A stretch of 64,000 nucleotides of DNA from Leisingera sp. ANG-M7 (lineage in GTDB: Bacteria > Pseudomonadota > Alphaproteobacteria > Rhodobacterales > Rhodobacteraceae), in NCBI RefSeq assembly GCF_000813965.1, contig NZ_JWLI01000002.1:1-64000 (forward strand), read 5' to 3'. The position numbers and the translations under genes are program-made. Numbering within the stretch: position 1 is the first letter of the stretch; each line of letters opens with the position of its first letter. A model generated the notes under the pieces. The model ran no database searches and had not been told where the DNA came from. It saw only the letters and a list, made by a program, of their open reading frames with translations. This document shows positions 1,334 through 21,048 of the stretch, piece after piece.

Positions 1334-2131
1334 CTATCCAGCGCCCGCCAGGTACCGGGTGGCCATTGAAAACAATTCCGCCTGCGAAGCGATGCCCAGC
1401 TTGGAATAGGCGTGGTGGCGATGGACCTTCACGGTGCCTTCGGCAATGCCGAGATAGGCGGCAGCGGAGGGGGTGGAATGGCCTTGCAGGATCAGCTGCA
1501 CCACCTCCCGTTCCCTCGGGCTGAGGACACCAGTGCCGAAGGTCTGCATGCGGTCCTCCCAGTCCGCAGGCTGGTGGGCCGCCGCGCTGTCTTCCGTCTG
1601 TCCCCATTGGCGCCGGACGGCTGCATCAATCAGTGTGAATACGGCATTCAGCCGTTCCGTGTCGGCCGCTTCAAACCGCTGCTGGCGGGCAAACCGGGCC
1701 AGCGACACGATAAACCAGCGTTCTGCCCCGTCCTGCACCAGGATGCCGATCTCGTCGCTGATGCTGATTTTGCGGTAAAAGGCGCGGTAGTATTCCGAGC
1801 GGTAGAATGCCTCCGGTGCTAGATCCATCAGCCGGTAGGCGCCGGGAGCGCAGCCGTTGCGGCAGGCCTGATACAGCGGGTCCAGAAGGTAGGGGCCGCT
1901 GGCGTAGAACTCCACTGTGATCGCCGCCTGCAGCTCATCCAGATCCTGATACAGCGGCACCGGCGGCTGCGCGCCCGCATAGTGCGAGACGACCATCGAA
2001 TCAAAGCTGCAGCATTGCGACAGGATCTGCCGCAGCGCGCCGGGAAAGCGCTCCGTTGCGATGAATCCCGCCATCGCCGTCATCGCCTTGGCCCAGCCAT
2101 CGGGCAGCAGCGGGAAGATTGGATCGTCCAT
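1334..2131 (-). CDS. LuxR-family transcriptional regulator
   Basis: A protein of about 265 residues with a C-terminal LuxR/GerE helix-turn-helix (about residues 200-260: LSPREREVVQLILQGHS, then LGIAEGTVKVHRHHAYSKLG). The N-terminal 190 residues do not look like a response-regulator receiver or a classical acyl-homoserine-lactone domain to me; they could be a divergent ligand-binding domain. The preferred start is the ATG at 2131, with AGG about 10 bases upstream; a GTG one codon earlier is also possible. It is divergent from the agmatinase-like gene at 2230, with about 100 bp between them, so it may regulate that polyamine-related operon. Such LuxR proteins with unassigned N-termini are common next to catabolic operons in Rhodobacteraceae. 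Confidence 0.78.
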   Translation of the reverse strand: MDDPIFPLLPDGWAKAMTAMAGFIATERFPGALRQILSQCCSFDSMVVSHYAGAQPPVPLYQDLDELQAAITVEFYASGPYLLDPLYQACRNGCAPGAYRLMDLAPEAFYRSEYYRAFYRKISISDEIGILVQDGAERWFIVSLARFARQQRFEAADTERLNAVFTLIDAAVRRQWGQTEDSAAAHQPADWEDRMQTFGTGVLSPREREVVQLILQGHSTPSAAAYLGIAEGTVKVHRHHAYSKLGIASQAELFSMATRYLAGAG

Positions 2132-2229
2132 CACTATACCTAAAGATATATGCCTTTGGCCAAGTTTGCCGGCATAAGCGCAAAAGTCAAACTGGGTCCA
2201 AGCGAATTTTCAACATGACGGAGACCCAA

Positions 2230-3201
2230 ATGACTGATTCCTCCAGCGTGAACCCCGTGCAGGGCGACTTGGCCTTTACCCGCGAAAGCGACCGCGGCGT
2301 GGTGGCGGAGGCCAGCTATGCCGGCGCGCTCAGCTTCATGCGGCGGCGTTACTCCCGCGATCTCAGCTGTGCGGATGTGGCAGTGATGGGGGTGCCGTTC
2401 GACCTGTCTGTGTCCAGCCGTTCCGGCACCCGGCTGGGGCCGCGGGCTGTGCGCTCAGGCTCCAGTCATATCGCCTGGTCGGCGCCCTGGCCGTGGAAGG
2501 TTGATCCCTACGAAGTGCTGCGGGTGGTCGACTTCGGCGATTGCGAGTTCGACTATGGCTATCCGCACAAGGTGCCGGGCGAAATCGCCCAGGCGGCGCG
2601 GGATATTCTGGCCTCAGACACGGCGCTGCTGTCGATCGGCGGTGACCATTTCATCACCTATCCGCTGCTGCACGCGCATGTGGAGAAACACGGGCCGCTG
2701 AGCCTGATCCAATTCGATGCCCATTCCGACACCTGGGCAGATGAGGAAGGCCGCATCGACCACGGGACTATGCTGTGGCACGCGATCCGCGAAGGGCTGG
2801 TGGACCCGGCCCGGTCAGTTCAGGTCGGCATCCGCACCCACAACCCCGACCCGCTGGGTATGAATATCATCGACGCCATCGAGGTGCAGAAGACCGGGCC
2901 CGAAGCGGTTGCGGAAAAGATCCGCGGCATCGTAGGCGATCATAAGACCTATGTGACTTTCGACATCGACGCGCTGGAACCAGCCTCTGCCCCCGGCACA
3001 GGCACGCCTGTGATTGGCGGCCTTTCGCCCTACCAGGCGCAGGAGATCATCCGCGGGCTGGCGGGCACCGATGTGGTGGGCATGGACGTGGTCGAGGTCG
3101 CCCCGGCCTATGACATCTCCGAAATCACTGCCATCGCGGCGGCCACCATCGCTAACGATCTGCTCTGCCTCTACGCTGCCGGACCTTCCGGTCAGCGCTG
3201 A
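2230..3201 (+). CDS. Agmatinase / ureohydrolase family protein
   Basis: A member of the arginase-agmatinase superfamily with all binuclear manganese motifs: GGDHF, then DAHSDT, then FDIDALEPASAPGTGTPVIGGLS. The agmatinase reaction is agmatine to putrescine plus urea, but guanidinobutyrase and related ureohydrolases have the same motifs, so the substrate is open. I chose the ATG at 2230 because GGAG lies 7 bases upstream; an in-frame ATG at 2215 has no good ribosome site. The protein is about 323 residues, the usual length. It heads a plus-strand series with a periplasmic binding protein 25 bp downstream and a polyamine-type transporter beyond the TetR gene. This fits import and cleavage of a guanidino compound, possibly one that is demethylated by the enzymes at 9208-14124. 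Confidence 0.88.
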   Translation: MTDSSSVNPVQGDLAFTRESDRGVVAEASYAGALSFMRRRYSRDLSCADVAVMGVPFDLSVSSRSGTRLGPRAVRSGSSHIAWSAPWPWKVDPYEVLRVVDFGDCEFDYGYPHKVPGEIAQAARDILASDTALLSIGGDHFITYPLLHAHVEKHGPLSLIQFDAHSDTWADEEGRIDHGTMLWHAIREGLVDPARSVQVGIRTHNPDPLGMNIIDAIEVQKTGPEAVAEKIRGIVGDHKTYVTFDIDALEPASAPGTGTPVIGGLSPYQAQEIIRGLAGTDVVGMDVVEVAPAYDISEITAIAAATIANDLLCLYAAGPSGQR

Positions 3202-3226
3202 GGCGGCGCAAAACAGGGAGGAAACA

Positions 3227-4312
3227 ATGATCAAAAACAATATCATGACTGCAATCTTGCTGGCCGCCGCCCTGGCGGCGCCAGCCTCTGCCGGTGATCT
3301 GGCGATCTACAACTGGGCGGACTATTTCGGCGAAACAACCATTTCCGGTTACGAGGAGGCAACCGGCACCAGGGTCACGCTGGATTACTTCGACAGCAAC
3401 GAGGTGCTGGAAACCAAGATGCTGGCGGGCGGCTCCGGCTATGACGTGGTGTTTCCCGCTGCCTCCAACGCCGAACGGCAACTGCAGGCGGGCGCGCTGC
3501 ATCCGGTCGATACCGCGCGGCTGAAAAACTACGGCAACCTGCGCCCTGAAATCCTGGCTTCGCTCGACCAAGTGCCGGGCGGGCGGCAGCTGGGCGTGCC
3601 CTATACCTGGGGCACCATTGGCATTGCCTACAACCCGGCACTGGTGGCTGAGCGGCTGGGGGACATCCCCGTTGACAGCTGGGACCTGCTGTTCGACCCG
3701 GCCAAAGCCGCCAAATTGAAGGACTGCGGCATCGGGGTGCTGGATTCGCCGGTGGAATTGCTGTCGGTGGCCCTGAATTACCTGGGCGCCGATCCCTATT
3801 CCGAAGACAAGGCGGAAGTCGCCAAGGCGCAGGATCTGCTGGCCGCGGCAGCGGAGAATGTCAGCTATTTCAACAATCAAAAATCTTCGACCGACCTGCC
3901 CGCGGGCAATGTCTGCCTGGCGGTGATGTATTCCGGTGATGCAGGCATCGCCCAGGCCCGGGCCATGGATGCGGATAACGGCGTCGAAATCCTCTATTCC
4001 ATTCCCAAGGAAGGCACCCTGATGTGGATCGACCTGATGGCGATCCCGGAAGACGCGCCCAATGTGGATGCGGCTTATGCCTTTATCGACTACATGCTGC
4101 GGCCGGAGGTGATTGCCGGGGTCTCCAATGCCGTGTTCTTTGCCAATGCAAATGCGGCGGCGGATGCCCATGTGCTGCCGGAGGTGCTGTCTGATCCGGG
4201 GATCTATCCGGATGCGGCCACCCTTGCGCGCCTGTTCCCGGACAAGAGCCTGGGCGCCAAAGCGCTGCGCCAGCGCACCCGGGCCTGGACCAAGGTGAAG
4301 TCAGGAATCTGA
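3227..4312 (+). CDS. Periplasmic polyamine-type substrate-binding protein (PotF/PotD family)
   Basis: A 361-residue exported protein. Residues 1-22 are a signal peptide (MIKNNIMTAILLAAALAAPASAG) and the mature part starts with the family-typical LAIYNWADYFGE, as in PotD and PotF. Later blocks such as YDVVFPAAS, GVPYTWGTIGIAYNPA and AVMYSGDAG fit the type 2 periplasmic fold. The start at 3227 has the strong site GGGAGGA 5 bases upstream. It follows the agmatinase by 25 bp, so both are probably one transcript. A second binding protein lies at 8074-9132 at the end of the permease operon. The system therefore has two receptors, which suggests two ligands or two affinities for one ABC transporter. 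The last 12 bp overlap the end of the opposing TetR gene. Confidence 0.85.
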   Translation: MIKNNIMTAILLAAALAAPASAGDLAIYNWADYFGETTISGYEEATGTRVTLDYFDSNEVLETKMLAGGSGYDVVFPAASNAERQLQAGALHPVDTARLKNYGNLRPEILASLDQVPGGRQLGVPYTWGTIGIAYNPALVAERLGDIPVDSWDLLFDPAKAAKLKDCGIGVLDSPVELLSVALNYLGADPYSEDKAEVAKAQDLLAAAAENVSYFNNQKSSTDLPAGNVCLAVMYSGDAGIAQARAMDADNGVEILYSIPKEGTLMWIDLMAIPEDAPNVDAAYAFIDYMLRPEVIAGVSNAVFFANANAAADAHVLPEVLSDPGIYPDAATLARLFPDKSLGAKALRQRTRAWTKVKSGI

Positions 4313-4987
4313 CGCCTCGGGGGCTGCGGGTGCGGCCCCCTTCTCCTGCTGGGGCCGGATCGCTCCCGAGAGCGCGAAATGCGCCGGGAACATTGCCGCA
4401 AGGAAGCGGAAGATGATCCGCGCCGCCTCCTCCCGGTCGAACCGGTCAGGGTGCAGCAGGAAGTCGGTCCACATGCCCTCAAGCAGCGCCAGGGTGCCAT
4501 GGGTGGCGTCGCGCGCCGCGCCGGAGGCATCCGGGGTTTCTGCCTCGCGCACGATCCGGGAAAAGGCATTGTGGATCATGCCGCGCAGGCGTCCGTCGCG
4601 GGTGTCTGAATGCTCGGCAATGGCGGTGCGGTTGCGGGACTCGCCGCGGAACGCGTACCAGATGTTGACATTGCGCCGGTTCAGCACCCGCTCACTGAGG
4701 TCGCCGCGCACGATCATCTCGATCCGCTCCTGCGGGCTGTCGCCAGCGGTCTGCAAAAGCGCTTCCAGCCCGTCGTAATACTCTTCCGAGGAATGGTGCG
4801 CCGCTGCCTGAACCAGGTTTTCCTTGCCGCCGAAATGCAGGTGGATCATGCCGCGTGACAGCCCTGCGCGCTGGATGATCTCGCTGACGGAGGTTTCGGA
4901 GATCCCCTTCTCTGCTACCGAATCCAGAACCGCTCCGATCAGGGCGAGGCGGTTCTGCTCGCGATTCTGTTCCCGTTTTCCGGCCAT
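4301..4987 (-). CDS. TetR-family transcriptional regulator (BetI-like)
   Basis: A 228-residue protein with an N-terminal TetR helix-turn-helix (about residues 12-58: LIGAVLDSVAEKG, then TSVSEIIQRAGLSRGMIHLHFGGKENLV), which resembles BetI, the choline/betaine repressor group. The C-terminal part is a helical ligand-binding domain ending in an Ala/Pro-rich tail. It is transcribed away from the permease operon starting at 5228. Two similar palindromes, ATGGAC-N4-GT(C/A)CAT, lie in the shared region at 5099-5114 and 5164-5179 and are good candidates for its operators. It probably represses itself and the transporter. The 3' end overlaps the end of the upstream binding-protein gene by 12 bp, tail to tail. 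The ligand is unknown; a polyamine, guanidino or betaine compound is the natural guess. Confidence 0.85.
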   Translation of the reverse strand: MAGKREQNREQNRLALIGAVLDSVAEKGISETSVSEIIQRAGLSRGMIHLHFGGKENLVQAAAHHSSEEYYDGLEALLQTAGDSPQERIEMIVRGDLSERVLNRRNVNIWYAFRGESRNRTAIAEHSDTRDGRLRGMIHNAFSRIVREAETPDASGAARDATHGTLALLEGMWTDFLLHPDRFDREEAARIIFRFLAAMFPAHFALSGAIRPQQEKGAAPAAPEASDS

Positions 4988-5227: not shown

Positions 5228-6091
5228 ATGGCCGGATTTCTCAGAACCGAGGCTGGAAAAGGCCTGGCGCTTAGCGCTCCCGCCTCGCTTTATGTGGGGC
5301 TTCTGGTGGCCGCACCGCTGGGTATTCTGGTCGCCTACAGCTTCTGGACCCAGACCTATGTCGAGATCGACAAAACGCTGACCTGGGCCAATTACTTGGA
5401 AGCCGCCACCGATCCGCTGGTGCGGCATCTGTTGCTGCGTTCGATCCTGATTGCCGGGGCGGTGACCGCGGCAACCGTGGCGCTGGCCTATCCGATCGCC
5501 TATTTCATTGCTTTCCGCACACATAAGAAAACCCTGTGGCTGCTGCTGATCACCATCCCGTTCTGGTCCAGCTACCTGCTGCGGGTGTTCAGCTGGAAAC
5601 TGATCCTGGGCTTCAACGGGGTGATGAACTCGGCGCTGATCTCCTTGGGGATCATCACCGAGCCGTTGACCTTCCTGCTATATAACGAATTCGCCGTGGT
5701 GCTGACCTTGGCGCACGCCTGGGCGCCCTTTGCGATCCTGCCGATCTATGTATCGCTGCAGAAGATCGACCGCTCGCTGCTGGAGGCGGCCACCGACCTG
5801 GGCCTCACCAAGCTGGAACGCTTCATCCGCGTTACCCTGCCCCTGACTGTGCCCGGCATCATCGCCGCCAGCCTGATCATCTTCATCCCTACCGTCGGCG
5901 ATTATGTGACTCCGTCGCTGGTCGGCGGCTCGCAGGGCAAGATGGTGGCGAACCTCATTCAAGTGCAGTTCGGCCCGGCAAACAACTGGCCGCTGGGCGC
6001 AACTTTGTCGCTGGTGGCGATGGCCTCGGTCGGCTTTGTCGCCATCCTGTTCGTCATCCTGGCCACCGCTTTGGGGAGGAGGATCCGTTGA
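5228..6091 (+). CDS. ABC transporter permease, PotB type
   Basis: A 287-residue inner-membrane protein with about six hydrophobic helices. It has the binding-protein-dependent permease signature EAATDLGLTKLERFIRVTLPLTVPGI (EAA loop, about residues 185-210), which contacts the ATPase. The order permease-permease-ATPase-binding protein matches polyamine/2-aminoethylphosphonate-type importers. The start at 5228 has GGAG 4 bases upstream. Its stop overlaps the TTG start of the next permease (6088-6091), so translation is coupled. Expression is probably controlled by the TetR protein through the two palindromes upstream. The substrate is not provable from sequence; polyamine, guanidino or quaternary amine uptake is likely from the neighbours. 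Confidence 0.88.
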   Translation: MAGFLRTEAGKGLALSAPASLYVGLLVAAPLGILVAYSFWTQTYVEIDKTLTWANYLEAATDPLVRHLLLRSILIAGAVTAATVALAYPIAYFIAFRTHKKTLWLLLITIPFWSSYLLRVFSWKLILGFNGVMNSALISLGIITEPLTFLLYNEFAVVLTLAHAWAPFAILPIYVSLQKIDRSLLEAATDLGLTKLERFIRVTLPLTVPGIIAASLIIFIPTVGDYVTPSLVGGSQGKMVANLIQVQFGPANNWPLGATLSLVAMASVGFVAILFVILATALGRRIR

Positions 6092-6939
6092 GCACTCCGG
6101 TTAGCGAACCCCTGAACAAGCAGCTGAGCGCTGCTGTCAGCAAGCCGCGGCGCAGACCCATCCGTTTCCCCTGGCTGCTGGTTTATGCTATCGGATACCT
6201 GATCTTCCTGTATCTGCCGGTGCTGCTGCTGCCGCTGTTCTCCTTCAATGACGGCACCATCGTCGCCTTTCCGATGAAGGGGTTCACGCTGAAATGGTAC
6301 GCCCAGCTGGGCGAGCAGGACACACTCTTGCAGGCCATGGTGAACTCGCTGATCGTCGGCGCGGTCACTGCGCTAGTGGCCACCTCGCTGGGACTGTTCG
6401 CGGCCCGCGCCTATGTCCGCTACCGCTTCAAAGGGCGCGAACTGTCGGAGGGGCTGGTGATGCTGCCGCTGGTCATTCCGGGTATCATCGTGGCCTCCTC
6501 CATGCTGGTGCTGTTCATCTCGCTGGGGCTGAAGCCGTCGCTGACGACGGTGATCCTGGGCCATGTATTTGTAGCCCTGCCCTTTGCGGTCTCGATCATG
6601 AAATCCGCCTTTGACGACTTCGACCAGTCGCTGGAGGAAGCAGCCTTCGACCTGGGCGAAAGTGTCATCGGCACCTTCCGCCGGGTGACTCTGCCGATTG
6701 TGGCGCCGGGGATTGTTGCCAGCCTGCTGGTCACCTTCACCGTCTCGTTCGACGAATTCGTGCTGGCCTTCTTCCTGTCCGGCAACCAGCCCACCTTGCC
6801 GGTCTATATCTGGAGCCAGATTCGCTTCCCGGCCAAGCTGCCGAACACGCTCGCGCTTGGCTCGCTCCTGTTGCTCGCCTCGGTGCTGCTGTTGCTGACC
6901 GCCGAATACTTCCGCCGCCGCTCCGCCAAGTCCGCCTGA
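6088..6939 (+). CDS. ABC transporter permease, PotC type
   Basis: A 283-residue inner-membrane protein and the second permease of the importer. About six membrane helices are visible, along with the EAA signature EEAAFDLGESVIGTFRRVTLPIVAPGI (about residues 189-215). The start is a TTG at 6088 that overlaps the preceding stop in the pattern TTGA, with GGGGAGGA about 10 bases upstream; this rare start codon is well supported by the ribosome site and the coupling. The stop overlaps the first base of the ATPase start in the pattern TGATG at 6937-6941. With PotB-type, PotA-type and two binding proteins it forms a complete importer. Confidence 0.88.
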   Translation: MSTPVSEPLNKQLSAAVSKPRRRPIRFPWLLVYAIGYLIFLYLPVLLLPLFSFNDGTIVAFPMKGFTLKWYAQLGEQDTLLQAMVNSLIVGAVTALVATSLGLFAARAYVRYRFKGRELSEGLVMLPLVIPGIIVASSMLVLFISLGLKPSLTTVILGHVFVALPFAVSIMKSAFDDFDQSLEEAAFDLGESVIGTFRRVTLPIVAPGIVASLLVTFTVSFDEFVLAFFLSGNQPTLPVYIWSQIRFPAKLPNTLALGSLLLLASVLLLLTAEYFRRRSAKSA

Positions 6940-8054
6940 TGAAGGATAGCCAGATGACCACTCAGAACATCATCGAAATCTCCGGGGTTGAGAAACGGTT
7001 CGGCACCTTCACCGCGGTGCGCGACCTGAACCTGACGCTGAAGGAGGGCGAGTTCTTTTCCCTGCTCGGACCCTCCGGCTGCGGCAAGACCACCGCGCTC
7101 AGAATGATCGCGGGCTTCCAGGACCACGACGCCGGCAGCATCCGCATCGGCGGCCAGGACATGGAGCATATCCCCGCCAACAAGCGGCCGACCAATATGG
7201 TGTTCCAGTCCTATGCGATCTTCCCGCATCTGAACGTTGGCGACAATGTTGCTTTTGGCCTGCGTAAGCTGAAGCTGGGCAAGGCCGAGACCGAAGAGCG
7301 CGTCGCCGAGGCGCTGGAGATGGTGGAGCTGGGCGGGTTGCAGTCGCGCAAGGCAACAGAGCTGTCCGGCGGCCAGCGCCAGCGGGTGGCGCTGGCCCGG
7401 GCGCTGGTGATGCGCCCCAAGGTGCTGTTGCTGGATGAGCCGCTATCAGCGCTCGACAAGAACCTGCGCGAGGCGATGCAGTTCGAAATGCGCCGCCTGC
7501 AGCAGAAGCTGGGGATCACCTTTGTCATGGTCACCCACGACCAGTACGAGGCAATGACCATGTCCGACCGCATCGGCGTGATGTTCAAAGGCCAGCTCAA
7601 GCAGGTCGACAAGCCCGAAGTGCTCTATGCCCGCCCTTGCAGCCAGGAAGTCGCGGCCTTCATCGGCGGCATGAACTTCCTGGATGCGGCTGTCACCGGA
7701 GAAGTAAACGGCAAACTGCACGCTGACTTGCAGGGCTTCGGGCCGCTGTCCATCGACGTGAACCCGAATGTGGCGCGGCGCGGGCCGCAGCTGCTGGCAG
7801 GCATCCGTCCAGAACAGCTGGAAATATCGGCGCAGAAGCCCGACGGCTACGACGGCTATCTGCAGGGCACTGTCACCAATGCCGCCTTTTACGGCGAGAA
7901 CGTGCATTACCACGTTACCACCGACGGCCTGTCGCAGCCCATCGCGGTATCGGTGCCGAACTACTTCCACACGGTTGATCACAAGCAGGGCGATCCGGTC
8001 TGGCTGGGCGTGCAGAACGCCTCTGTAATCGACCTCGGCGCCCGCGAGGCATGA
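6939..8054 (+). CDS. ABC transporter ATP-binding protein, PotA type
   Basis: A 371-residue cytoplasmic ATPase. Walker A is GPSGCGKT (residues 44-51), the signature is LSGGQRQRVALARAL, Walker B is VLLLDEPLSALD, and the switch histidine is in VTHDQYEAM. The C-terminal 130 residues form a TOBE-type domain (FIGGMNFLDA, then LLAGIRPEQLEI), as in PotA, FbpC and MalK-type subunits. The first ATG at 6939 overlaps the preceding stop; an ATG at 6954 is an alternative start. It drives import through the two permeases at 5228-6939. The binding-protein gene follows 19 bp downstream with its own strong ribosome site. Confidence 0.92.
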   Translation: MKDSQMTTQNIIEISGVEKRFGTFTAVRDLNLTLKEGEFFSLLGPSGCGKTTALRMIAGFQDHDAGSIRIGGQDMEHIPANKRPTNMVFQSYAIFPHLNVGDNVAFGLRKLKLGKAETEERVAEALEMVELGGLQSRKATELSGGQRQRVALARALVMRPKVLLLDEPLSALDKNLREAMQFEMRRLQQKLGITFVMVTHDQYEAMTMSDRIGVMFKGQLKQVDKPEVLYARPCSQEVAAFIGGMNFLDAAVTGEVNGKLHADLQGFGPLSIDVNPNVARRGPQLLAGIRPEQLEISAQKPDGYDGYLQGTVTNAAFYGENVHYHVTTDGLSQPIAVSVPNYFHTVDHKQGDPVWLGVQNASVIDLGAREA

Positions 8055-8073: not shown

Positions 8074-9132
8074 ATGAAACACTTCACAACGGTACTGGCC
8101 GCGGCTACGGCCTTAACCGCCTCGGCAGGCATCGCATCCGCCGACGCCGCCAGTCTGTCGGTCTTTGACTGGTCCGGCTACGAGGATCAGGGGTTCTACG
8201 GCGATTACGTTGCCAAATACGGCGGCGCGCCCAGCTACACCTATTTCGGCAGTGTCGAGGAGGCTTTCACCAAGCTGCAATCGGGTTTTGCCGCCGACCT
8301 CGCCCACCCCTGCACCGACGGCCTGCGCAAATGGGTGGCGGCGGGGCTCTTGAAGCCGATCGACACCTCGAAAATCAGCAACTGGGACAGCCTTCTGCCG
8401 CAGATCAAGGATGTGGACGGCGTCACCATTGACGGCCAGACCTATATGGTGCCGTTTGAGTGGGGCAACACCGGGCTGATCTATCGCACCGACCAGATTG
8501 ATGAGAGTGCTGTCTCTCTGCAGCTGATGGCCGACCCCGCCTATCAGGGCAAGATCGCCATTCCTGATGCAGCCTCCTCGGCCTATGCAATGGCGGCGCT
8601 GGCGACCGGCGCCTCCAGCTATACCGACATGTCGGACGAGGAATTCCAGAAAGCGTCTGATTTTCTGCGCCAGATCCACCCGAATGTGCGGTTCTACTGG
8701 TCCGATGCGGGCCAGCTGGATCAGGCCATCGCCAGCGGAGAGGTGCTGATGGGCTGGGGCTGGAACCAGTCGGAGCTGAACCTGATCTGGAACGAAACAC
8801 CGGCCAAGATGATGCGCGACGTAGACAAAGGTATTGCGACCTGGGTCTGCGGCTATGTGCATCTGAACTCCTCGACCCAGAGCGACGAGCAAGTTTATGA
8901 CATGCTGAATGCGCTGAGTTCTGAGCCCAGCGGCAAGTACATCATCGAAAACTGGGGCTATGCCCATGCCAATGCCGATGCCTTCAAATCCGCCGATCAG
9001 AGCCTGATCGAGACCTACGGTTTTGCCGATGTCGACAAGTTCTTCGAGGGCAGCCTGTTTTTCGATGCGGTCAACCCTGAGCTGGAGGGCCGGATGCTGA
9101 AGGAGTTCGAGCGCATCAAGGCCGGCTTCTGA
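8074..9132 (+). CDS. Periplasmic substrate-binding protein, PotD-like (second receptor)
   Basis: A 352-residue exported protein with a signal peptide (about residues 1-23, ending ASA-DAA). The mature region has SVFDWSGYEDQGFYGDYVAKYG and MVPFEWGNTGLIYRTDQ, both usual blocks of the spermidine/putrescine-binding family. It follows the ATPase by 19 bp and has AGGGAGGA upstream. This binding protein is distinct from that at 3227-4312 (different block sequences), so the operon carries two receptors. Downstream is a GC-rich hairpin (9143-9164) before the TMADH-like gene, which could protect the upstream message and raise receptor levels. The real ligand is unknown; polyamine-like family membership does not prove polyamine binding. 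Confidence 0.87.
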   Translation: MKHFTTVLAAATALTASAGIASADAASLSVFDWSGYEDQGFYGDYVAKYGGAPSYTYFGSVEEAFTKLQSGFAADLAHPCTDGLRKWVAAGLLKPIDTSKISNWDSLLPQIKDVDGVTIDGQTYMVPFEWGNTGLIYRTDQIDESAVSLQLMADPAYQGKIAIPDAASSAYAMAALATGASSYTDMSDEEFQKASDFLRQIHPNVRFYWSDAGQLDQAIASGEVLMGWGWNQSELNLIWNETPAKMMRDVDKGIATWVCGYVHLNSSTQSDEQVYDMLNALSSEPSGKYIIENWGYAHANADAFKSADQSLIETYGFADVDKFFEGSLFFDAVNPELEGRMLKEFERIKAGF

Positions 9133-9207: not shown

Positions 9208-11283
9208 ATGCCAGGCGCAAATGGGTATTCCATTCTGTTCGAGCCGGTGAAGATCGGTCCCGTCACCACCCGCAACCGCTTTTTCCAGGTGCCGCATTGC
9301 ACCGGTCTGGGCCACGTCCGCCCGCAGGCCGAGGCCGCGGTGCGCGCGATGAAGGCGGAGGGTGGCTGGTCCGTGGTCTCAACCCAGGAGACGGAGATCC
9401 ATCCGACCTCTGATCTTGGCCCCTACGCCGAGCATCGGCTGTGGGACAAGCACGACATCCCGGCGCTGCGGCTGATGACGGACCAGGTCCACGCCAAGGG
9501 GTCGCTGGCGGCGATCCAGCTGGCCCATAACGGTCACCACGCCACCAACCACCTGACCCGCGCTCCGGCGCTGGGGGTCAGCGACCGCCCGATTGATGCG
9601 GTCTACCCGAAACAGGCCCGCGCCATGGACAAGCAGGACATCCGCGACCTGCGCCGCTGGCACCGCGACGCGGCACTGCGGGCAAAGGAGGCAGGCTTTG
9701 ACATCGTCTATGTCTACGCAGGCCACCAGATGACACTGCCGCATCATTTCCTGCTGCCGCAGTACAATACCCGCAGTGATGAATACGGCGGCTCGCTGGA
9801 AAACCGCGTCCGGCTGACCCGTGAACTGCTTGAAGACACCCGCGAGGTGCTGGACGGCCACTGCGCTGTCGCCTTCCGCTTTGCCGTTGACCAGATGATG
9901 GGCGCAGACGGAATGCAAGCCAGCGAAGAGGGCCGTGCGGTAGTCGAGATGCTGGCGGATCTGCCCGATCTCTGGGATGTGAATGTCGCCGACTGGAGCA
10001 ACGATAGCCAGACCACCCGGTTTCAGCCTGAAGATGGCTATCAGATCCCCTACACCGATTTCGTGAAGCAGGTGACGAACAAGCCGGTGGTAGGCGTCGG
10101 CCGTTTCACCTCGCCTGACCTGATGGCCTCGCTGGTCTCCAAGGGCGTGCTGGACCTCATTGGCGCCGCCCGCCCCTCTATCGCTGATCCGTTCCTTCCG
10201 AATAAGATTGAGGAAAGCCGGATCGAGGAAATCCGCGAATGCATCGGCTGCAACATCTGTGTTTCTGCCGACAATCTCGGCGTCCCGATCCGCTGCACCC
10301 AGAACCCCACGATGGGCGAGGAATGGCGGCGCAAGTGGCATCCTGAGCAGGTCGCTCCGAAACAGCAGGAAGAGGCCGCGCTGGTGGTCGGCTCAGGCCC
10401 TGCCGGTCTGGAATGCGCGATGCAACTGGCCAAGCGCGGCTATCAGGTGACGCTGGCCGAAGCGGCAGAGGAATTCGGCGGCCGGGTGCTGAAGGAAAGC
10501 AGGCTGAAGGGCCTGTCCGCCTGGAAACGGGTCGCCGACAACCGCCTGTGGGACCTGCAGCAGCGCGGAAATGTTCAGATGTTCACCGGCAGCAAACTTG
10601 GCGCCGCTGAGGTTGCAGAACTCGGCATCCCCAATGTCTTTCTGGCCACCGGCAGCACCTGGCACCGCGACGGGCGCGGCCGCACCTCTCCGCTGCCGTT
10701 GGAGATCAAGGACATACCCGTCTTCACTCCCGACGACGTGATGGAAGGCACCCTGCCGCCGGACAATGGTCCTGTGCTGCTTTATGACGACGATCAGGGC
10801 TACATCGGCGGCGTGCTGGCCAGCCATCTGGCCGCCGCAGGCCGCAAGGTGGTGCTGGTGACGCCGGGTGCCATTGCCTCGGCCTTCACGGATCTGACGC
10901 TTGAACAGCACCGGGTGCAGGCGGAACTGCTGGAGGCAGGTGTGGAAATCATCCCGCTGCATTCCCTCCAATCCGCGGATGGCGACGGCGCGGAACTGGC
11001 CTGCATATATACCAGCCGCACCCGCCGTGTGGACTGTGCGAGCCTGCTGCTGGTCACCTCCCGCCAGCGCGACACCGCGCTTTATGATGAGCTGAAAGCA
11101 GATCACGCGGACAGTTTCACCACGCTGGAGCTGATCGGCGACGCGGCCTCCCCCGGCCTGATTGCCGATGCGGTCTTTGCCGGCCATCTGGCGGCCCGCA
11201 ATTTCGAACGCGACCCGGCGGCGGCAGATGCCGATTGGTTCCGCCGCGAACTGATTTCCCTCGAAGACATGGGAGGCGCATGA
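9208..11283 (+). CDS. Trimethylamine-dehydrogenase-like FMN/4Fe-4S flavoprotein demethylase with altered substrate pocket
   Basis: A 691-residue protein with the full TMADH/DMADH layout: an OYE-like FMN barrel (residues 1-340), a 4Fe-4S site and a C-terminal FAD/NAD-like fold starting with VVGSGPAGLECA. From my memory of Methylophilus TMADH, Cys31 (NRFFQVPHC) matches the cysteine that binds 6-S-FMN. Tyr170, His173 and Asp266 match the catalytic triad, and Cys345, Cys348, Cys351 and Cys363 match the cluster ligands. The aromatic bowl is not kept: Glu61, Ala106 and Asp355 replace Tyr60, Trp105 and Trp355, while Trp263 remains. The expected reaction is oxidative N-demethylation with formaldehyde release and electrons passed to an ETF; no ETF gene is in the window. 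The stop overlaps the Rieske start by one base, so the two proteins are coupled. Confidence 0.85.
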   Translation: MPGANGYSILFEPVKIGPVTTRNRFFQVPHCTGLGHVRPQAEAAVRAMKAEGGWSVVSTQETEIHPTSDLGPYAEHRLWDKHDIPALRLMTDQVHAKGSLAAIQLAHNGHHATNHLTRAPALGVSDRPIDAVYPKQARAMDKQDIRDLRRWHRDAALRAKEAGFDIVYVYAGHQMTLPHHFLLPQYNTRSDEYGGSLENRVRLTRELLEDTREVLDGHCAVAFRFAVDQMMGADGMQASEEGRAVVEMLADLPDLWDVNVADWSNDSQTTRFQPEDGYQIPYTDFVKQVTNKPVVGVGRFTSPDLMASLVSKGVLDLIGAARPSIADPFLPNKIEESRIEEIRECIGCNICVSADNLGVPIRCTQNPTMGEEWRRKWHPEQVAPKQQEEAALVVGSGPAGLECAMQLAKRGYQVTLAEAAEEFGGRVLKESRLKGLSAWKRVADNRLWDLQQRGNVQMFTGSKLGAAEVAELGIPNVFLATGSTWHRDGRGRTSPLPLEIKDIPVFTPDDVMEGTLPPDNGPVLLYDDDQGYIGGVLASHLAAAGRKVVLVTPGAIASAFTDLTLEQHRVQAELLEAGVEIIPLHSLQSADGDGAELACIYTSRTRRVDCASLLLVTSRQRDTALYDELKADHADSFTTLELIGDAASPGLIADAVFAGHLAARNFERDPAAADADWFRRELISLEDMGGA

Positions 11284-12482
11284 TGCCCAAAGACGACTTG
11301 CAAGTGATGCGTGAGCTGATGGAGAGCCACCGCGAGGGATTTGCGCTGGAACGGCATTTCTACACCTCGGAAGCGGTCTATGACCACGACATCAAGATGT
11401 TTTGGAACCGCAACTGGATCTGGGTGGGCCACGTCAGCCAGATTGCGGAACCCGGCGACTATTTCCTGTTTGACTACGGCCCGGAGTCGGTGATCGTCGT
11501 GCGCGACCGCGAAGGCGAAGTGCGCGCCCATCTGAATGTCTGCCGCCACCGCGGCTCCCGCGTGTGTTTGGAAAAACAGGGCACGGCGCGGGTGTTCTCC
11601 TGCCCCTATCACGCCTGGACCTTCGGGCTGGATGGGAAACTGCGCGGCGGCCGCGCCATGGGGCCGGATTTCGACCCGTCCGACTACGGGCTTTTCCCGG
11701 TACAGGTGCAGATTTTCCAGGGGCTCATCTTCATCTGCGCCGATGAAAACCCGCCGCCGCTGGCGAAAAGCCTGGACCGCCTGGCACCGCTGTCAGCTCC
11801 GATGGAGCTGGAGAACCTGAAACTGGCGCATGAGGCCTCCTATCCGGTGCCTGCCAACTGGAAGCTGGCGCTGGAAAACTACCTGGAATGCTACCACTGC
11901 GCCCCATCGCATCAGGAGTATTCCCGCAGCCACTCGCTCAAGGATCCGGCGGATGTGGCGAAATACGGCGCGGACTTGCGCGAACGCTCCGCTTCCATCG
12001 GCCTGCCGGTAGAAGAGCTGGACCTGACCGGTCCCAACGCACAGGCGCCGGGCTCGGACGTCTACTGGCGCCGTTACCCTCTTTTCCCCGGCTACCAGAC
12101 CGGCAGCAGGGACGGCGAGCCGTTGGCGCCCCCGCTGGGCAGCCTCAGCGGCCACGACGGCGGGGCCACCGATCTGGCCATTGGCACGCTGAACTACTTC
12201 CTGATCTATGCCGACCATCTGGTGGGTTACCGGTTTGTGCCTCGCGGCCTGCAGGAAACCGACATCCAGATCGCTTGGTACGTACGCGGCGATGCCGAAG
12301 AGGGACGCGATTATACCAAGGAAGCCCTGACTTGGTTGTGGCATGTCACCTCACTCGATGATGAGCGCATCATCCGCCACAATCAGGAGGGCGTGAACTC
12401 GTACCGTTTTGCGCCCGGTCCGCTGTCAGAGATGGAATGGAGCCTGCCCGGCTTCTACCGCAGCTATTTCAGCATGATCTGA
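11283..12482 (+). CDS. Rieske non-heme iron oxygenase, alpha subunit (GbcA-like demethylase)
   Basis: A 399-residue protein with an N-terminal Rieske domain, Cys87-x-His89 and Cys107-x2-His110, and a catalytic domain with the bridging acid and iron ligands in ENYLECYHCAPSH (Glu202, His205, His210) and a later Asp around 359-360. The family includes glycine betaine demethylase GbcA, stachydrine demethylase and ring-hydroxylating dioxygenases. In this context an N-demethylase for a quaternary or methylated amine is most likely. The start at 11283 has GGGAGG 6 bases upstream and overlaps the preceding stop. No reductase partner (GbcB-type) lies next to it; the flavoprotein upstream could supply electrons, but that is inference. 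The MttB-like gene follows after a hairpin at 12507-12528. Confidence 0.87.
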   Translation: MPKDDLQVMRELMESHREGFALERHFYTSEAVYDHDIKMFWNRNWIWVGHVSQIAEPGDYFLFDYGPESVIVVRDREGEVRAHLNVCRHRGSRVCLEKQGTARVFSCPYHAWTFGLDGKLRGGRAMGPDFDPSDYGLFPVQVQIFQGLIFICADENPPPLAKSLDRLAPLSAPMELENLKLAHEASYPVPANWKLALENYLECYHCAPSHQEYSRSHSLKDPADVAKYGADLRERSASIGLPVEELDLTGPNAQAPGSDVYWRRYPLFPGYQTGSRDGEPLAPPLGSLSGHDGGATDLAIGTLNYFLIYADHLVGYRFVPRGLQETDIQIAWYVRGDAEEGRDYTKEALTWLWHVTSLDDERIIRHNQEGVNSYRFAPGPLSEMEWSLPGFYRSYFSMI

Positions 12483-12552: not shown

Positions 12553-14124
12553 ATGGTTGACGTCACCAAGACCCGAACCCGGCGCCGCAGCGGCGGCCGC
12601 GATGCCCGCGCCGCGGCCCGCAGCCAGTCCACCGCCAGCCAGGCGATCTGGCCCGGCATCTCCGGCGGCCGCTATCGGCCCTTGTCGGATGCCGGCATGC
12701 AGAAGATCCACAACGCCGCGCTGACCATCCTTGAGCGCACCGGCATCGGGGATCCGACAGAGGAGCTGCTGGATCTGGTGCTGCCCAAGGGCGCCATCCT
12801 CAGCGAACACGGCCGCCTCTGCTTTCCACGGGCGCTGATGGAGGATCTTCTGGCCGGTGCGGCCAATGAGTTTTACGTCCACGCCCGCGGCAGCCGTGCA
12901 GGCAAGGACGACATGCACTGTACCAAGGACAAGGTCTATTACGCCAACTCCGGAACCGCGGTGACAACCTTTGACGCCGCCAGCCGCAGCTACCGCCCTT
13001 CCACTATCCGCGACGTCTATGACTTCACCCGGCTGGTGGACCGGCTCGACAACATCCACATGACCGGCGACACCGTGCTGGGAACCGATGTGCCGCAGGA
13101 TTTCGAGCATGACATGTCGATGCTCTATTCCATTCTGGCGGGCAGCGAGAAACCGTCCTGCCTCACCTTCCGCGACCGTTCCCACATCAAGCCGGCGATC
13201 GAAATGTTCGACATCGCCTCCGGCGGAGAGGGGAAATTCCTGCAAAAACCCTCGGTGATCTTCGGAGGCTGCCCGATCGTTTCGCCGCTGCGGCTGGGGC
13301 GCGAGAACCTGGAGATCATGATCGACACCGCCAAATTGGGCCTGACCTGCGATCTGGCAGTGCCGCCGCAGGCCGGGGCGACCTCCCCTGCCCCGCTGGC
13401 CGGCACCCTGGCGCAAGCGGTGGCCGAAACCCTGTCCTGCGTCGCCATCGTCAACCTGATCAACCCCGGCACGCCGGTCGTCTTTGCCGCCTGGCCCTTC
13501 ATCACCGATCTGCGCACAGGCTCGTTCACCGGCGGATCGGGCGAGCAGGCGCTGATCGGCGCTGCCGCGATCCAGATGGGCAATTTCTACAACCTGCCCA
13601 CCTCCGTCGGCTGCGGCATGACGGATTCCAAGATCCCGGACGCGCAATACGGTCTGGAAAAGGCGCTGACCTTCAGCCTAGCGGCCCACGCCGGCGCCAA
13701 CCGCCTGTGTGAATTCGGCGGCATGGTCGGCTCGCTGATGGGCTGTTCGTTCGAGTCGATGGTGATCGACGATGAGGCCGCCGGCATGATCTCCCGCACC
13801 CTGCGAGGGATCGAGGTCAGCGACGACACCCTCTCGGTTGATGTGATCCACGACTGCGCTACTGGACCGGGCCATTTCCTCGGCAACACCCAGACGCTGC
13901 AGTATATGGAGACGGAATACGTCTACCCCGACCTGATGGACCGGGAACTGACCGACACCTGGGAAAAGGCCGGCAAACAGACCATGTTCGACCGCGCCCG
14001 CGAGGTGTCGGACAGGATCCTGGGCGAGCATTATCCGAATTACCTCGGCAGCAAGCTCGACGCAGAGGTCCGCGCCAAGTTCCCGGTCAAACTGCCGCCG
14101 GAGGCGATGCGCCCCGGCAGATGA
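12553..14124 (+). CDS. MttB-family (non-pyrrolysine) trimethylamine methyltransferase homologue 1
   Basis: A 523-residue MttB superfamily protein with a typical length and an ungapped frame. There is no in-frame amber codon, so it is a non-pyrrolysine member like MtgB or MtpB, which act on glycine betaine or proline betaine. The core includes LSDAGMQKIHNAALTILERTGI near residue 45 and AQAVAETLSCVAIVNLINPGTPVVFAAWPF in the barrel. The first 25 residues are a basic Arg/Gly/Ala tail. In characterised systems a methyl group moves from the amine to a corrinoid protein; no corrinoid-binding gene or reactivase is visible here, so the acceptor is unclear. GGAG lies 9 bases before the start. It is the last gene of the plus-strand cluster and ends 15 bp from the opposing enolase-family gene. 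Confidence 0.87.
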   Translation: MVDVTKTRTRRRSGGRDARAAARSQSTASQAIWPGISGGRYRPLSDAGMQKIHNAALTILERTGIGDPTEELLDLVLPKGAILSEHGRLCFPRALMEDLLAGAANEFYVHARGSRAGKDDMHCTKDKVYYANSGTAVTTFDAASRSYRPSTIRDVYDFTRLVDRLDNIHMTGDTVLGTDVPQDFEHDMSMLYSILAGSEKPSCLTFRDRSHIKPAIEMFDIASGGEGKFLQKPSVIFGGCPIVSPLRLGRENLEIMIDTAKLGLTCDLAVPPQAGATSPAPLAGTLAQAVAETLSCVAIVNLINPGTPVVFAAWPFITDLRTGSFTGGSGEQALIGAAAIQMGNFYNLPTSVGCGMTDSKIPDAQYGLEKALTFSLAAHAGANRLCEFGGMVGSLMGCSFESMVIDDEAAGMISRTLRGIEVSDDTLSVDVIHDCATGPGHFLGNTQTLQYMETEYVYPDLMDRELTDTWEKAGKQTMFDRAREVSDRILGEHYPNYLGSKLDAEVRAKFPVKLPPEAMRPGR

Positions 14125-14139: not shown

Positions 14140-15348
14140 TCACTGAACCACTGGCTCCTGCGCCAACTCCAGATGCAGTTTGCTGCCGGTATAGGGGCTG
14201 GCGGCGATGGCTGCATCGTCCAGCTCCACCCCCAGGCCCGGCTCCTTGGAGGGGATCACATAGCCGTCCTCCCAGGTGATCGCGGACTTGAGACAGGACA
14301 TATAGGGGCCTTCGAAAGTGCCGATGCTTTCCAAGATCAGAAAGTTCGGGCTGCACGTGGCAATCTGAATATTCGCTGCCGCCACCACCGGCCCGCAGTA
14401 AAGATGCGGCGCGATCAGGGCCTGCCGGGTTTCGGCCATGGAGGCGATCTTCTTGGCCTCCAAGAGGCCGCCAACCCGCCCCAAGTCCATTTGCAGGATC
14501 GAGGCCGCTCCCGCCTCCAGCACGCGGGCGAATTCATGTTTGGTGCAGAGCCGCTCACCGGTGGAGATTGGCACGGAGGTAAACCGCGCGACCTCTGCCA
14601 TATCGGCGGGATTTTCCGGCGGCACCGGTTCCTCGAACCACAAGGGCTCATAGGGTTCCAGCCGCCGCGCCATCCGTTTTGCGCCCGATACGGTGAACTG
14701 TCCGTGGGTGCCGAACAGCAGGTCCGCACGGGTGCCGACCGCCTCACGGATGCGCTTCACGAACATTTCGCTGCGCTCCAGGTCCTCCAGCCGCGGCTGA
14801 TGCCCGTCATAGATCGTATACGGCCCGGCCGGGTCGAATTTCACTGCGGTAAAGCCCTGCTCCACCCGCTGCAGTGCAACTTCCGCCGCCATATCCGGGT
14901 CGTTGTAGACATTGGGCGTGTCCGGGTCCGGGTAGACGTCGCCTTCCGGCGGGTACAGGTAGGTATAGCTGCGCAGCCGCTCATGCACCTGGCCGCCCAT
15001 CAGCTCATACACCGGCTTGCCCGCGGCCTTGCCGATGATGTCCCAGCAGGCCATTTCCAGACCGCTCAGCACTCCCATCACCGTCACATCCGGCCGCATC
15101 GAATAGCCCGCGCCATAGGATTTGCGCCAAAGCTTCTCGATATGGTGCGGGTCGCAGCCCACGAATTGGCGGGCAAACATCTCCTCTGCCATGGCACAGC
15201 ACAGATCCGGGCCGAAGGTGGCGTTATAAATCTCGCCCACCCCGGTGATACCGCAAGCGGTGGTCAGGCGCACAAAGATGAAATAGCGCCCGCCATGGCG
15301 CGGCGGCGGGTTGCCGAACACAAAGGTTTCGATCTTATCGAGCTTCAT
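14140..15348 (-). CDS. Enolase-superfamily (mandelate racemase/galactonate dehydratase-like) protein
   Basis: A 402-residue protein with the N-terminal capping and C-terminal barrel of the DgoD/RspA-like branch. Visible parts are GLEMACWDIIGKAAGKPVYELMGG, WFEEPVPPENPADM, STGERL and APHLYCGP. By comparison with DgoD from memory, His in FGTHGQF and His in APHL match the catalytic bases, and Glu in FEEP and GER match two metal ligands. The usual first ligand Asp (VDFHG) is Gly here (FGTHG). The start at 15348 has AGGGAA 6 bases upstream; the frame is open to 15390. The gene lies 13 bp after the GMC oxidoreductase stop, so they form an operon. Dehydration or isomerisation of a polyhydroxy acid or betaine derivative is likely; the substrate is unknown. 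Confidence 0.8.
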   Translation of the reverse strand: MKLDKIETFVFGNPPPRHGGRYFIFVRLTTACGITGVGEIYNATFGPDLCCAMAEEMFARQFVGCDPHHIEKLWRKSYGAGYSMRPDVTVMGVLSGLEMACWDIIGKAAGKPVYELMGGQVHERLRSYTYLYPPEGDVYPDPDTPNVYNDPDMAAEVALQRVEQGFTAVKFDPAGPYTIYDGHQPRLEDLERSEMFVKRIREAVGTRADLLFGTHGQFTVSGAKRMARRLEPYEPLWFEEPVPPENPADMAEVARFTSVPISTGERLCTKHEFARVLEAGAASILQMDLGRVGGLLEAKKIASMAETRQALIAPHLYCGPVVAAANIQIATCSPNFLILESIGTFEGPYMSCLKSAITWEDGYVIPSKEPGLGVELDDAAIAASPYTGSKLHLELAQEPVVQ

Positions 15349-15361
15349 CTGAAATTCCCTG

Positions 15362-20979: not shown

Positions 20980-21048
20980 CGGGACCTCCCAAAGCCTGCA
21001 AAGATGCTGCCCCGGGGGGAGCCCGGGCTTCTGCACTCCAAACTGTAT

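What the first reader, a model, noticed from the sequence alone, without database searches (positions are those of the whole stretch)
9208..11283. TMADH-like flavoprotein with the aromatic cation bowl replaced by acidic residues
Cofactor and catalytic residues (Cys31, Tyr170, His173, Asp266, and Cys345/348/351/363) match trimethylamine dehydrogenase, but the aromatic residues that hold the trimethylammonium group (Tyr60, Trp105 and Trp355 by TMADH numbering) become Glu61, Ala106 and Asp355. Trp263 is retained. Two new acids would favour a substrate with extra positive charge, such as an N-methylated guanidino compound or polyamine. The agmatinase and polyamine-type transporter genes beside it fit this.
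Basis: partly seen in the sequence, partly recalled or inferred. Interest (0 to 1): 0.75.

Follow-up and report, generated by a model that had tools for sequence, protein, structure and literature searches.

The report
Flavin demethylase in a quaternary-amine operon
This marine bacterial gene makes a flavin amine dehydrogenase related to histamine dehydrogenase; its acid-lined pocket is ordinary for its family, but it sits in an operon that probably strips methyl groups one by one from a still unidentified quaternary ammonium compound.

Summary
But TMADH is the wrong yardstick. The nearest solved relatives are histamine dehydrogenases (50% and 48% identity) and 6-hydroxypseudooxynicotine oxidase (47%); TMADH is 40%. 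Among 126 relatives Glu61 occurs in 100 and Asp355 in 118, so the acids are the family's usual state. The inference of an extra positive charge is weak: the operon's PotD-like binding protein has lost three of four polyamine-binding acids in all 28 rows aligned (the fourth in 23), and within the clade the agmatinase was found only in Leisingera-type loci. What the context does support is an N-methylated substrate. The gene overlaps a Rieske oxygenase of the quaternary-ammonium type, an MttB-type methyltransferase follows, and 35 of 40 close relatives with enough sequence have one or both just downstream. Best reading: Rieske enzyme or MttB removes the first methyl from a quaternary ammonium compound and this flavoprotein the next. 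Substrate unknown; no activity shown. A new variant of a known kind.

The parts
9208..11283 (+). TMADH/histamine-dehydrogenase-type flavoprotein (FMN on Cys31 and [4Fe-4S] on Cys345/348/351/363 by homology; pocket Glu61, Glu75, Ala106, His111, Tyr170, His173, Met175, Trp263, Asp266, Asp355)
   Evidence: predicted fold matches 3K30 (TM 0.91) and 2TMD (TM 0.88)
11280..12482 (+). Rieske oxygenase alpha subunit of the quaternary-ammonium group (Stc2/GbcA-like); two consecutive ATGs, so its start overlaps the flavoprotein stop by 4 bases (ATGA) or by 1
   Evidence: C-X-H...C-X2-H and E-C-Y-H-C motifs and start context; the L086 annotation uses the second ATG
12553..14124 (+). MttB-superfamily corrinoid methyltransferase without an in-frame stop
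8074..9132 (+). PotD-like periplasmic binding protein with the four polyamine-binding acids replaced and the aromatic residues kept
6939..8054 (+). PotA-like ABC ATPase
6088..6939 (+). PotC-like ABC permease (ORF with TTG start; true start may lie inside)
5228..6091 (+). PotB-like ABC permease
4301..4987 (-). BetI-like TetR regulator, divergent from the operon
   Evidence: same place in many relatives
3014..4312 (+). PotF-like binding protein (true start probably near 3239); not part of the conserved unit
2119..3201 (+). agmatinase-family hydrolase (true start probably near 2230); within the clade found beside the operon only in Leisingera-type loci

Best explanation
The gene encodes a flavin/iron-sulfur amine dehydrogenase of the TMADH/histamine dehydrogenase family. 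It works as the second-step N-demethylase in a catabolic operon for a quaternary ammonium compound that probably carries one positive charge. Proposed order: (1) a Pot-type ABC transporter with a remodelled, aromatic, acid-poor binding protein imports the compound; (2) the Rieske oxygenase (using O2) or the MttB-type methyltransferase (passing the methyl to a cobalamin protein) removes the first methyl and leaves a tertiary amine; (3) the flavoprotein oxidises an N-methyl group at FMN, water releases formaldehyde and a secondary amine, and electrons leave through the [4Fe-4S] cluster, probably to electron-transfer flavoprotein; (4) after full demethylation a class III aminotransferase, beside the operon in many relatives and elsewhere in this genome, takes the primary amine. 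Shown here: protein family, residues, operon make-up and its conservation, loss of acids in the binding protein. Inferred: every reaction, the order, the charge and the electron acceptor. The substrate is unknown; an omega-trimethylammonium acid such as beta-alanine betaine or gamma-butyrobetaine would fit (inference).
For: Family and fold. Overlap with the Rieske gene. Rieske nearest solved relatives are 3VCA and 4QUP (stachydrine demethylase Stc2; that name for the entry is recalled), 3N0Q and carnitine monooxygenase CntA; the Cys-X-X-Cys pair described for some Group V enzymes (PMC10952381, passages) is in the window protein and in 25 of 25 Rieske neighbours of its cluster. Within 3.5 kb downstream of the gene, in the 33 of 38 clade loci with at least 3.3 kb there: Rieske and MttB 13, Rieske only 10, MttB only 5, neither 5; in seven further loci: 1, 4, 2, 0. 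All four transporter genes at 60% identity or more in 23 of 32 clade loci with at least 5 kb upstream. Binding protein: 28 of 28 rows have Gly36, Cys83 and Cys257, no acid at 168, and keep Trp34, Tyr37, Trp229, Trp255, Tyr293. Aminotransferase on the fetched stretch in 21 loci by cluster and in 23 loci at 50% identity or more; a 69% relative in this genome. The genome holds one PF02607 corrinoid-binding protein that could serve this MttB.
Against: No activity is known. Five of the 33 relatives have neither demethylase just downstream, and in the neighbouring group of loci 10 of 14 have neither. Presence of Rieske and MttB is statistically independent, so the counts do not show that one replaces the other. 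Neither neighbour meets its NCBIfam equivalog cut-off (GbcA 276.7 of 670 bits; MttB 353.4 of 525). None of the seven operon genes is a Rieske reductase or a corrinoid protein. The aminotransferase is not on the fetched stretch of any of the five Leisingera-type loci. Known relatives deaminate (histamine dehydrogenase) or release methylamine (6-hydroxypseudooxynicotine oxidase) rather than remove a methyl group. The ATPase passes a polyamine PotA model. The roles and numbers of the PotD residues are recalled. The acids Glu61, Glu75 and Asp355 must bind something, and a cation is the natural guess.
Confidence: 0.55

Rival explanations
1. One reading: the flavoprotein oxidises a dicationic N-methylated guanidino compound or methylated polyamine, whose second charge is held by Glu61 and Asp355; agmatinase and the Pot transporter belong to the same pathway.
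For: Histamine dehydrogenases with Asp358/Glu79 accept agmatine, putrescine and 1,3-diaminopropane (PMC10180351). Agmatinase lies beside the gene in Leisingera-type loci and agmatinase-like genes beside distant relatives L060 and L080. The aminotransferase resembles polyamine and putrescine transaminases. The ATPase passes the polyamine PotA subfamily cut-off. L060 also holds a glutamine-synthetase-like gene with matches below cut-off to type III glutamate-ammonia ligase and gamma-glutamylputrescine synthetase.
Against: The operon binding protein lacks acids at PotD positions 36, 168 and 257 in 28 of 28 rows, whereas six of six Pot proteins of ordinary type in the same alignment keep acids at 36, 171 and 257. 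No agmatinase in 23 of 23 non-Leisingera loci of the clade with 7 kb upstream. The acids are not special to this gene.
Confidence: 0.18
2. The enzyme deaminates (cuts the bond between nitrogen and the larger carbon chain) a primary or secondary amine, as histamine dehydrogenase and 6-hydroxypseudooxynicotine oxidase do, after other enzymes have removed methyl groups.
For: Closest solved relatives do this. Glu61 is shared with 6-hydroxypseudooxynicotine oxidase 6L6J; such an enzyme releases methylamine from its substrate (PMC5500553, passages). The Leisingera-type loci have no aminotransferase at hand.
Against: An aminotransferase for a final primary amine lies near many relatives, which would make a deaminating dehydrogenase redundant there. 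The histamine-stacking aromatic residue is Met175 here. Histamine dehydrogenase activity is better assigned to the paralogue L002 in the same genome (79% to 6DE6).
Confidence: 0.2
3. It is the dimethylglycine demethylase of glycine betaine breakdown in these bacteria.
For: GbcA-type Rieske enzymes and MtgB of the MttB superfamily both demethylate glycine betaine (PMC12478193, passages), and the neighbours belong to these groups.
Against: The Rieske protein scores 276.7 bits against a GbcA cut-off of 670. The window MttB is the lowest-scoring of ten MttB matches in the genome (337 against up to 775 bits). Only 13 of 295 sampled genomes of the family carry the gene at E below 1e-270, too few for a general glycine betaine pathway (inference).
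Confidence: 0.05
4. It is a trimethylamine or dimethylamine dehydrogenase in the strict sense.
For: Same cofactor sites, catalytic residues and fold.
Against: Tyr60 and Trp105 of the cation bowl are absent; 40% identity only.
Confidence: 0.02

Closest known systems
Histamine dehydrogenase (Nocardioides simplex 3K30; Rhizobium sp. 4-9 6DE6)
   Same: 50% and 48% identity over the full length; Cys for FMN, four cluster cysteines, Tyr/His, Trp263, Glu75, Ala106 and Asp355 shared
   Different: Glu61 instead of Gln; Met175 instead of Tyr181/Phe176; His111 instead of Asn; Gly172 instead of Ala; Ser264 instead of Glu. Different operon; a 79% relative of 6DE6 exists separately in the same genome (L002)
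6-hydroxypseudooxynicotine oxidase (HisD 6L6J; NdpC; Pno)
   Same: 47% identity to 6L6J, Glu at the Tyr60 position, Ala at the Trp105 position
   Different: 6L6J has Ala where Cys31 stands here and Val at 355; NdpC lies with nicotine-pathway genes
Trimethylamine dehydrogenase (Methylophilus, 1DJN/2TMD)
   Same: Fold, cofactor sites, catalytic residues, Trp263
   Different: 40% identity; bowl residues Tyr60 and Trp105 replaced, Trp355 replaced or facing a gap
N-methylproline demethylase HpbA (StcD-type)
   Same: Same broad flavoenzyme superfamily; partner of a Rieske demethylase in betaine breakdown (recalled)
   Different: 29.6% identity over 79% of the length to an annotated HpbA; on the remote side of the tree, with other letters at the cofactor and pocket positions
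Group V Rieske demethylases (Stc2, CntA, GbcA) and MttB-superfamily methyltransferases (MtgB)
   Same: The two partner genes belong to these groups
   Different: Below the NCBIfam cut-offs for GbcA and for MttB

Membership tests
   Glu61, Ala106, Asp355 (or gap); only Trp263 kept
Trimethylamine dehydrogenase | Cys30 for 6-S-cysteinyl FMN, Cys345/348/351/364, Tyr169/His172/Asp267 | tested here: met
   Cys31, Cys345/348/351/363, Tyr170/His173/Asp266
Histamine dehydrogenase | Gln at the Gln65 (N. simplex)/Gln60 (Rhizobium) position | tested here: not met
   Glu61; Gln60 variants of the Rhizobium enzyme were active but much weaker on histamine (PMC10180351)
Histamine dehydrogenase | Aromatic residue at Phe176/Tyr181 | tested here: not met
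   Met175; Met in 38 of 39 rows of the clade; Phe176 highly sensitive to change in the Rhizobium enzyme
Histamine dehydrogenase | Trp267, Asp358 and Glu79 equivalents | tested here: met
   Trp263, Asp355, Glu75
Histamine dehydrogenase | Oxidation of histamine | not testable with these tools
   needs purified protein
6-hydroxypseudooxynicotine oxidase | Branch with 6L6J/NdpC | tested here: not met
   6L6J and NdpC form their own branch, 100 support, without the window protein
HpbA/StcD N-methylproline demethylase | Close sequence relationship | tested here: not met
   29.6% identity to annotated HpbA; on the remote side of the tree. StcD itself was not fetched
Group V Rieske oxygenase (neighbour gene) | Rieske motif, bridging Glu with adjacent Cys-X-X-Cys, nearest relatives act on quaternary ammonium | tested here: met
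   the cysteine pair is described for some Group V members in PMC10952381
Glycine betaine monooxygenase GbcA (neighbour gene) | NCBIfam NF058607 cut-off | tested here: not met
   276.7 bits against 670
MttB superfamily (neighbour gene) | Pfam MTTB domain over its cut-off | tested here: met
   337.6 bits against 25
Trimethylamine methyltransferase MttB proper (neighbour gene) | TIGR02369 cut-off and in-frame amber (pyrrolysine) codon | tested here: not met
   353.4 bits against 525; ORF without in-frame stop
Polyamine-binding protein PotD/PotF (operon binding protein) | Acids at Glu36, Asp168, Glu171, Asp257 (numbering and roles recalled) and NCBIfam cut-offs | tested here: not met
   Gly, Ala, Ser, Cys; PotD model 85.1 of 582 bits, PotF model 61.5 of 636
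Polyamine transporter ATPase PotA (operon ATPase) | TIGR01187 subfamily cut-off | tested here: met
   358.7 bits against 355.6; the PotA equivalog NF006987 is not met (371.2 of 482)

The most novel reading that the evidence does not exclude
A so far undescribed marine catabolic pathway for a quaternary ammonium compound of unknown identity, in which the first methyl can be removed either by an oxygen-dependent Rieske oxygenase or by a cobalamin-dependent MttB-type methyltransferase encoded in the same operon, the next by an acid-pocket member of the TMADH/histamine dehydrogenase family, and the import protein is a PotD-type receptor converted from binding polyamines to binding a betaine. I saw no description of such an operon in the listings of my ten searches of the open-access library (most to the point 20, 66 and 67), which lacks most subscription journals.
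Probability: 0.35. Interest if true: 0.6.

Novelty: new variant of a known kind. Interest (0 to 1): 0.4.

Why it matters
Roseobacters break down methylated nitrogen compounds from algae, and their genomes carry many MttB-type genes without a known substrate (up to seven noted in PMC12478193, passages; ten matches here). This operon ties one of them to a Rieske oxygenase, a flavoprotein and a binding protein that can be purified and screened, so the substrate can be sought directly. It also warns against reading TMADH-like pockets against TMADH alone: in this family the acid pocket is the rule and the aromatic bowl the exception.

Tried and rejected
Considered and dropped. (1) Proline or hydroxyproline betaine, because a mandelate-racemase-type gene (14140-15390) lies next door and HpbD is of that superfamily (recalled): its nearest structure is 4E5T and its best NCBIfam matches are galactonate dehydratases below cut-off, and annotated HpbA is only a remote relative of the flavoprotein. 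(2) Taurine betaine, because a thiamine-diphosphate enzyme lies at 19288-21036: sulfoacetaldehyde acetyltransferase TIGR03457 scores 253.8 against a cut-off of 676.4. (3) Mutual replacement of Rieske and MttB: Fisher tests gave p = 0.74 (40 loci) and 0.59 (54 loci), so presence is independent. (4) Docking or pocket geometry on a model: the AlphaFold model has pLDDT under 50 at 263-276 and 346-379, which hold active-site and cluster residues, so only the overall fold was used. (5) Ten ORFs around four of the five clade loci with neither demethylase (L015, L021, L025, L026) and around L028 gave no common partner; L027 was not looked at. Rows dropped before counts: one search leaves out six remote or misaligned rows (L025_1, L005_0, L084_3, L004_0, L109_0, L003_0), one duplicate of the window (L101_0) and the four PDB rows; three rows that are kept have gaps at the N-terminal sites. 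In one search two rows (cluster c70) are antisense ORFs and were ignored. Of 12 genome stretches, five have the contig lengths of loci already held (L149, L151, L152, L153, L155) and were not counted again; that the other seven are new rests on contig length alone.

Papers: PMC10180351, PMC12478193, PMC10952381, PMC12239276, PMC5500553 and PMC8437039 were seen as found passages only; PMC8744998 held none of the terms sought; the N. simplex crystal-structure paper PMC2919140 is not held, so its content is known here only through PMC10180351 and from recall. Other papers were seen in search listings only.
Full report
What is there. Identities over aligned residues are 50, 48, 47 and 40%. 6L6J is listed as 6-hydroxypseudooxynicotine amine oxidase HisD and is 87% identical to an annotated 6-hydroxypseudooxynicotine oxidase NdpC. 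An AlphaFold model (mean pLDDT 78) matches the same four enzymes first (TM by query length 0.91, 0.89, 0.88, 0.88), but loops with active-site and cluster residues are poorly predicted, so I draw no geometry from it. The organism is probably a Leisingera relative: the nearest named loci are Leisingera (96, 95 and 92%) and a Bugula-associated Rhodobacteraceae bacterium (93%).

The pocket. Against TMADH, Tyr60 becomes Glu61 and Trp105 becomes Ala106; Trp355 becomes Asp355 in HMMER's alignment but faces a gap in MAFFT's. Against histamine dehydrogenase only Glu61 differs at these places (Gln there); Ala106 and Asp355 are shared, and so is a third acid, Glu75. PMC10180351 (passages) lists Gln65, Glu79, Trp267 and Asp358 among proposed histamine-binding residues of the N. 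simplex enzyme and reports that most clones of the Rhizobium enzyme changed at Tyr171, Phe176, Trp263, Asp265 or Asp354 had no activity. So the partial loss of the aromatic bowl was known before for this family. Among 126 relatives (window included, remote and PDB rows left out), position 61 is Glu in 100, Gln in 15, Tyr in 4, other in 4 and gapped in 3; 75 is Glu in 110; 355 is Asp in 118; 99 have both Glu61 and Asp355. In the window's own clade of 39 rows all three acids are invariant. In the large tree, with remote superfamily rows outside, TMADH and two related rows split off before the other 128 rows (the join of the remote rows is a long-branch one). In the smaller tree, rooted by me on TMADH, the 6-hydroxypseudooxynicotine oxidases branch next and histamine dehydrogenases and the window's clade lie in the remainder. 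Four rows with Tyr at 61, Trp at 106 and Tyr at 263 (L042_1, L060_1, L083_1, L084_2) are nested inside the acid-bearing part, with modest supports (81 to 94), and hang from an unresolved fork at its base; an aromatic pocket may thus have arisen there a second time. What sets the window's clade apart from histamine dehydrogenase is Glu61, His111 (37 of 39), Gly172 (38 of 39) and Met175 (38 of 39). A separate gene in the same genome, L002 on contig C57, is 79% identical to Rhizobium histamine dehydrogenase with the same letters at all 24 sites tabulated.

The operon. Upstream on the same strand are two ABC permeases, a PotA-like ATPase and a PotD-like binding protein; a BetI-like TetR gene is divergent. 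The flavoprotein stop overlaps the first ATG of a Rieske oxygenase as ATGA (positions 11280-11283; a second ATG follows at once). The Rieske protein's nearest solved relatives are 3VCA/4QUP (Stc2, name recalled) and 3N0Q, then carnitine monooxygenase CntA, and it has the bridging Glu followed by Cys-X-X-Cys, which PMC10952381 describes for some Group V enzymes that act on quaternary ammonium compounds (motif). An MttB-superfamily gene follows; its nearest solved relatives are 2QNE and glycine betaine methyltransferase 9YCE.

Conservation of the operon. I mapped the window's neighbours onto the fetched loci by tblastn. Of 38 loci in the window's clade, 33 hold at least 3.3 kb downstream: within 3.5 kb, 13 have Rieske and MttB, 10 Rieske only, 5 MttB only, 5 neither. 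Seven further loci from a family-wide genome sample give 1, 4, 2 and 0 (five of the 12 stretches fetched repeat held contigs). Together 35 of 40 have at least one. All four transporter genes are there in 23 of 32 clade loci with at least 5 kb upstream. In the neighbouring group of 17 loci, 14 have enough downstream sequence: 3 MttB only, 1 Rieske only, 10 neither, and none has the transporter. Presence of Rieske and MttB is statistically independent, so I claim linkage to the operon, not mutual replacement. A class III aminotransferase lies on the fetched stretch in 21 loci, also in distant lineages (L042, L060, L072, L080, L084), but in none of the five Leisingera-type loci. Four members tested exceed the cut-off of NCBIfam NF005447 (aminotransferase); PDB matches of one include putrescine and polyamine:pyruvate transaminases. 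In the window's genome its 69% relative is on contig C1. Within the family the gene is patchy: 13 of 295 genomes sampled, own included, at E below 1e-270; relatives at E below 1e-150 occur in 45 of 385 genomes of the class sample.

The transporter and the agmatinase. Aligned to E. coli PotD, the operon's binding protein has Gly, Ala, Ser, Cys at 36, 168, 171, 257, where PotD has Glu, Asp, Glu, Asp. All 28 rows (27 relatives, five of them from other or separate contexts, and the window) have Gly36, Cys83 and Cys257, no acid at 168, and keep Trp34, Tyr37, Trp229, Trp255 and Tyr293; five rows have Asp at 171. The PotF-like protein beside the agmatinase and five other Pot proteins of ordinary type keep acids at 36, 171 and 257. 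The role of these residues in polyamine binding is recalled. This speaks against a polycation and for a ligand held by aromatic residues. On the other side, the ATPase just passes the polyamine PotA subfamily cut-off. Agmatinase is beside the gene in 5 of 5 Leisingera-type loci (and in L146) and in 0 of 23 other loci of the clade with at least 7 kb upstream. It therefore looks like a separate agmatine or putrescine cassette of Leisingera. The counter-evidence is that agmatinase-like genes lie directly beside the distant relatives L060 and, split over frames, L080.

How it most likely works. The Rieske and MttB groups act on quaternary ammonium compounds. TMADH-type enzymes oxidise amines at FMN. 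An aminotransferase would finish a fully demethylated primary amine. The simplest chain is quaternary to tertiary (Rieske or MttB), then to secondary or primary (this flavoprotein), then transamination. The genome has ten MttB-family matches and one PF02607 corrinoid-binding protein, which fits the sharing of one corrinoid protein among several MttB proteins discussed in PMC12478193. Only assays can decide.

Verdict. It is a new variant of a known kind, in an operon whose substrate is worth finding.

Noticed in passing
window 13618-13717: Rfam PYLIS_3 (pyrrolysine insertion element of mttB) matches at 48.4 bits inside an MttB-family gene without an in-frame stop, so it probably reflects coding homology rather than a working element.
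   Followed up: partly
G000 contigs C1, C8, C12, C18, C34, C55; window 34751-36289: Ten MttB-family matches but only one PF02607 corrinoid-binding match in the genome; four of the ten are on the window's contig, two of them inside the window.
   Followed up: partly
L042, L060, L083, L084: These loci hold an acid-pocket flavoprotein together with an aromatic-pocket (Tyr61, Trp106) one, adjacent in L060, L083 and L084, as if the two served successive steps.
   Followed up: partly
window 8074-9132: The operon's PotD-like protein and its 27 aligned relatives have cysteines at PotD positions 83 and 257, both near the ligand site in PotD (recalled); they could form a disulfide or line the site.
   Followed up: no
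window 14140-17020: A galactonate-dehydratase-like enzyme close to structure 4E5T and a GMC oxidoreductase run convergent to the operon; relatives of the first also lie on the stretches around the flavoprotein in three Kiloniella loci and L040.
   Followed up: partly
L002 / L159 (contig C57): A likely true histamine dehydrogenase of the same genome lies with an aldehyde dehydrogenase, a DUF1028 gene and its own Pot-type transporter, an arrangement similar to that in Paracoccus seriniphilus L111.
   Followed up: partly
window 29104-31521: A protein with an FAD oxidoreductase domain and a glycine-cleavage T domain (dimethylglycine or sarcosine dehydrogenase type), with matches far below cut-off to named families; further methyl-group chemistry in the same window.
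   Followed up: no
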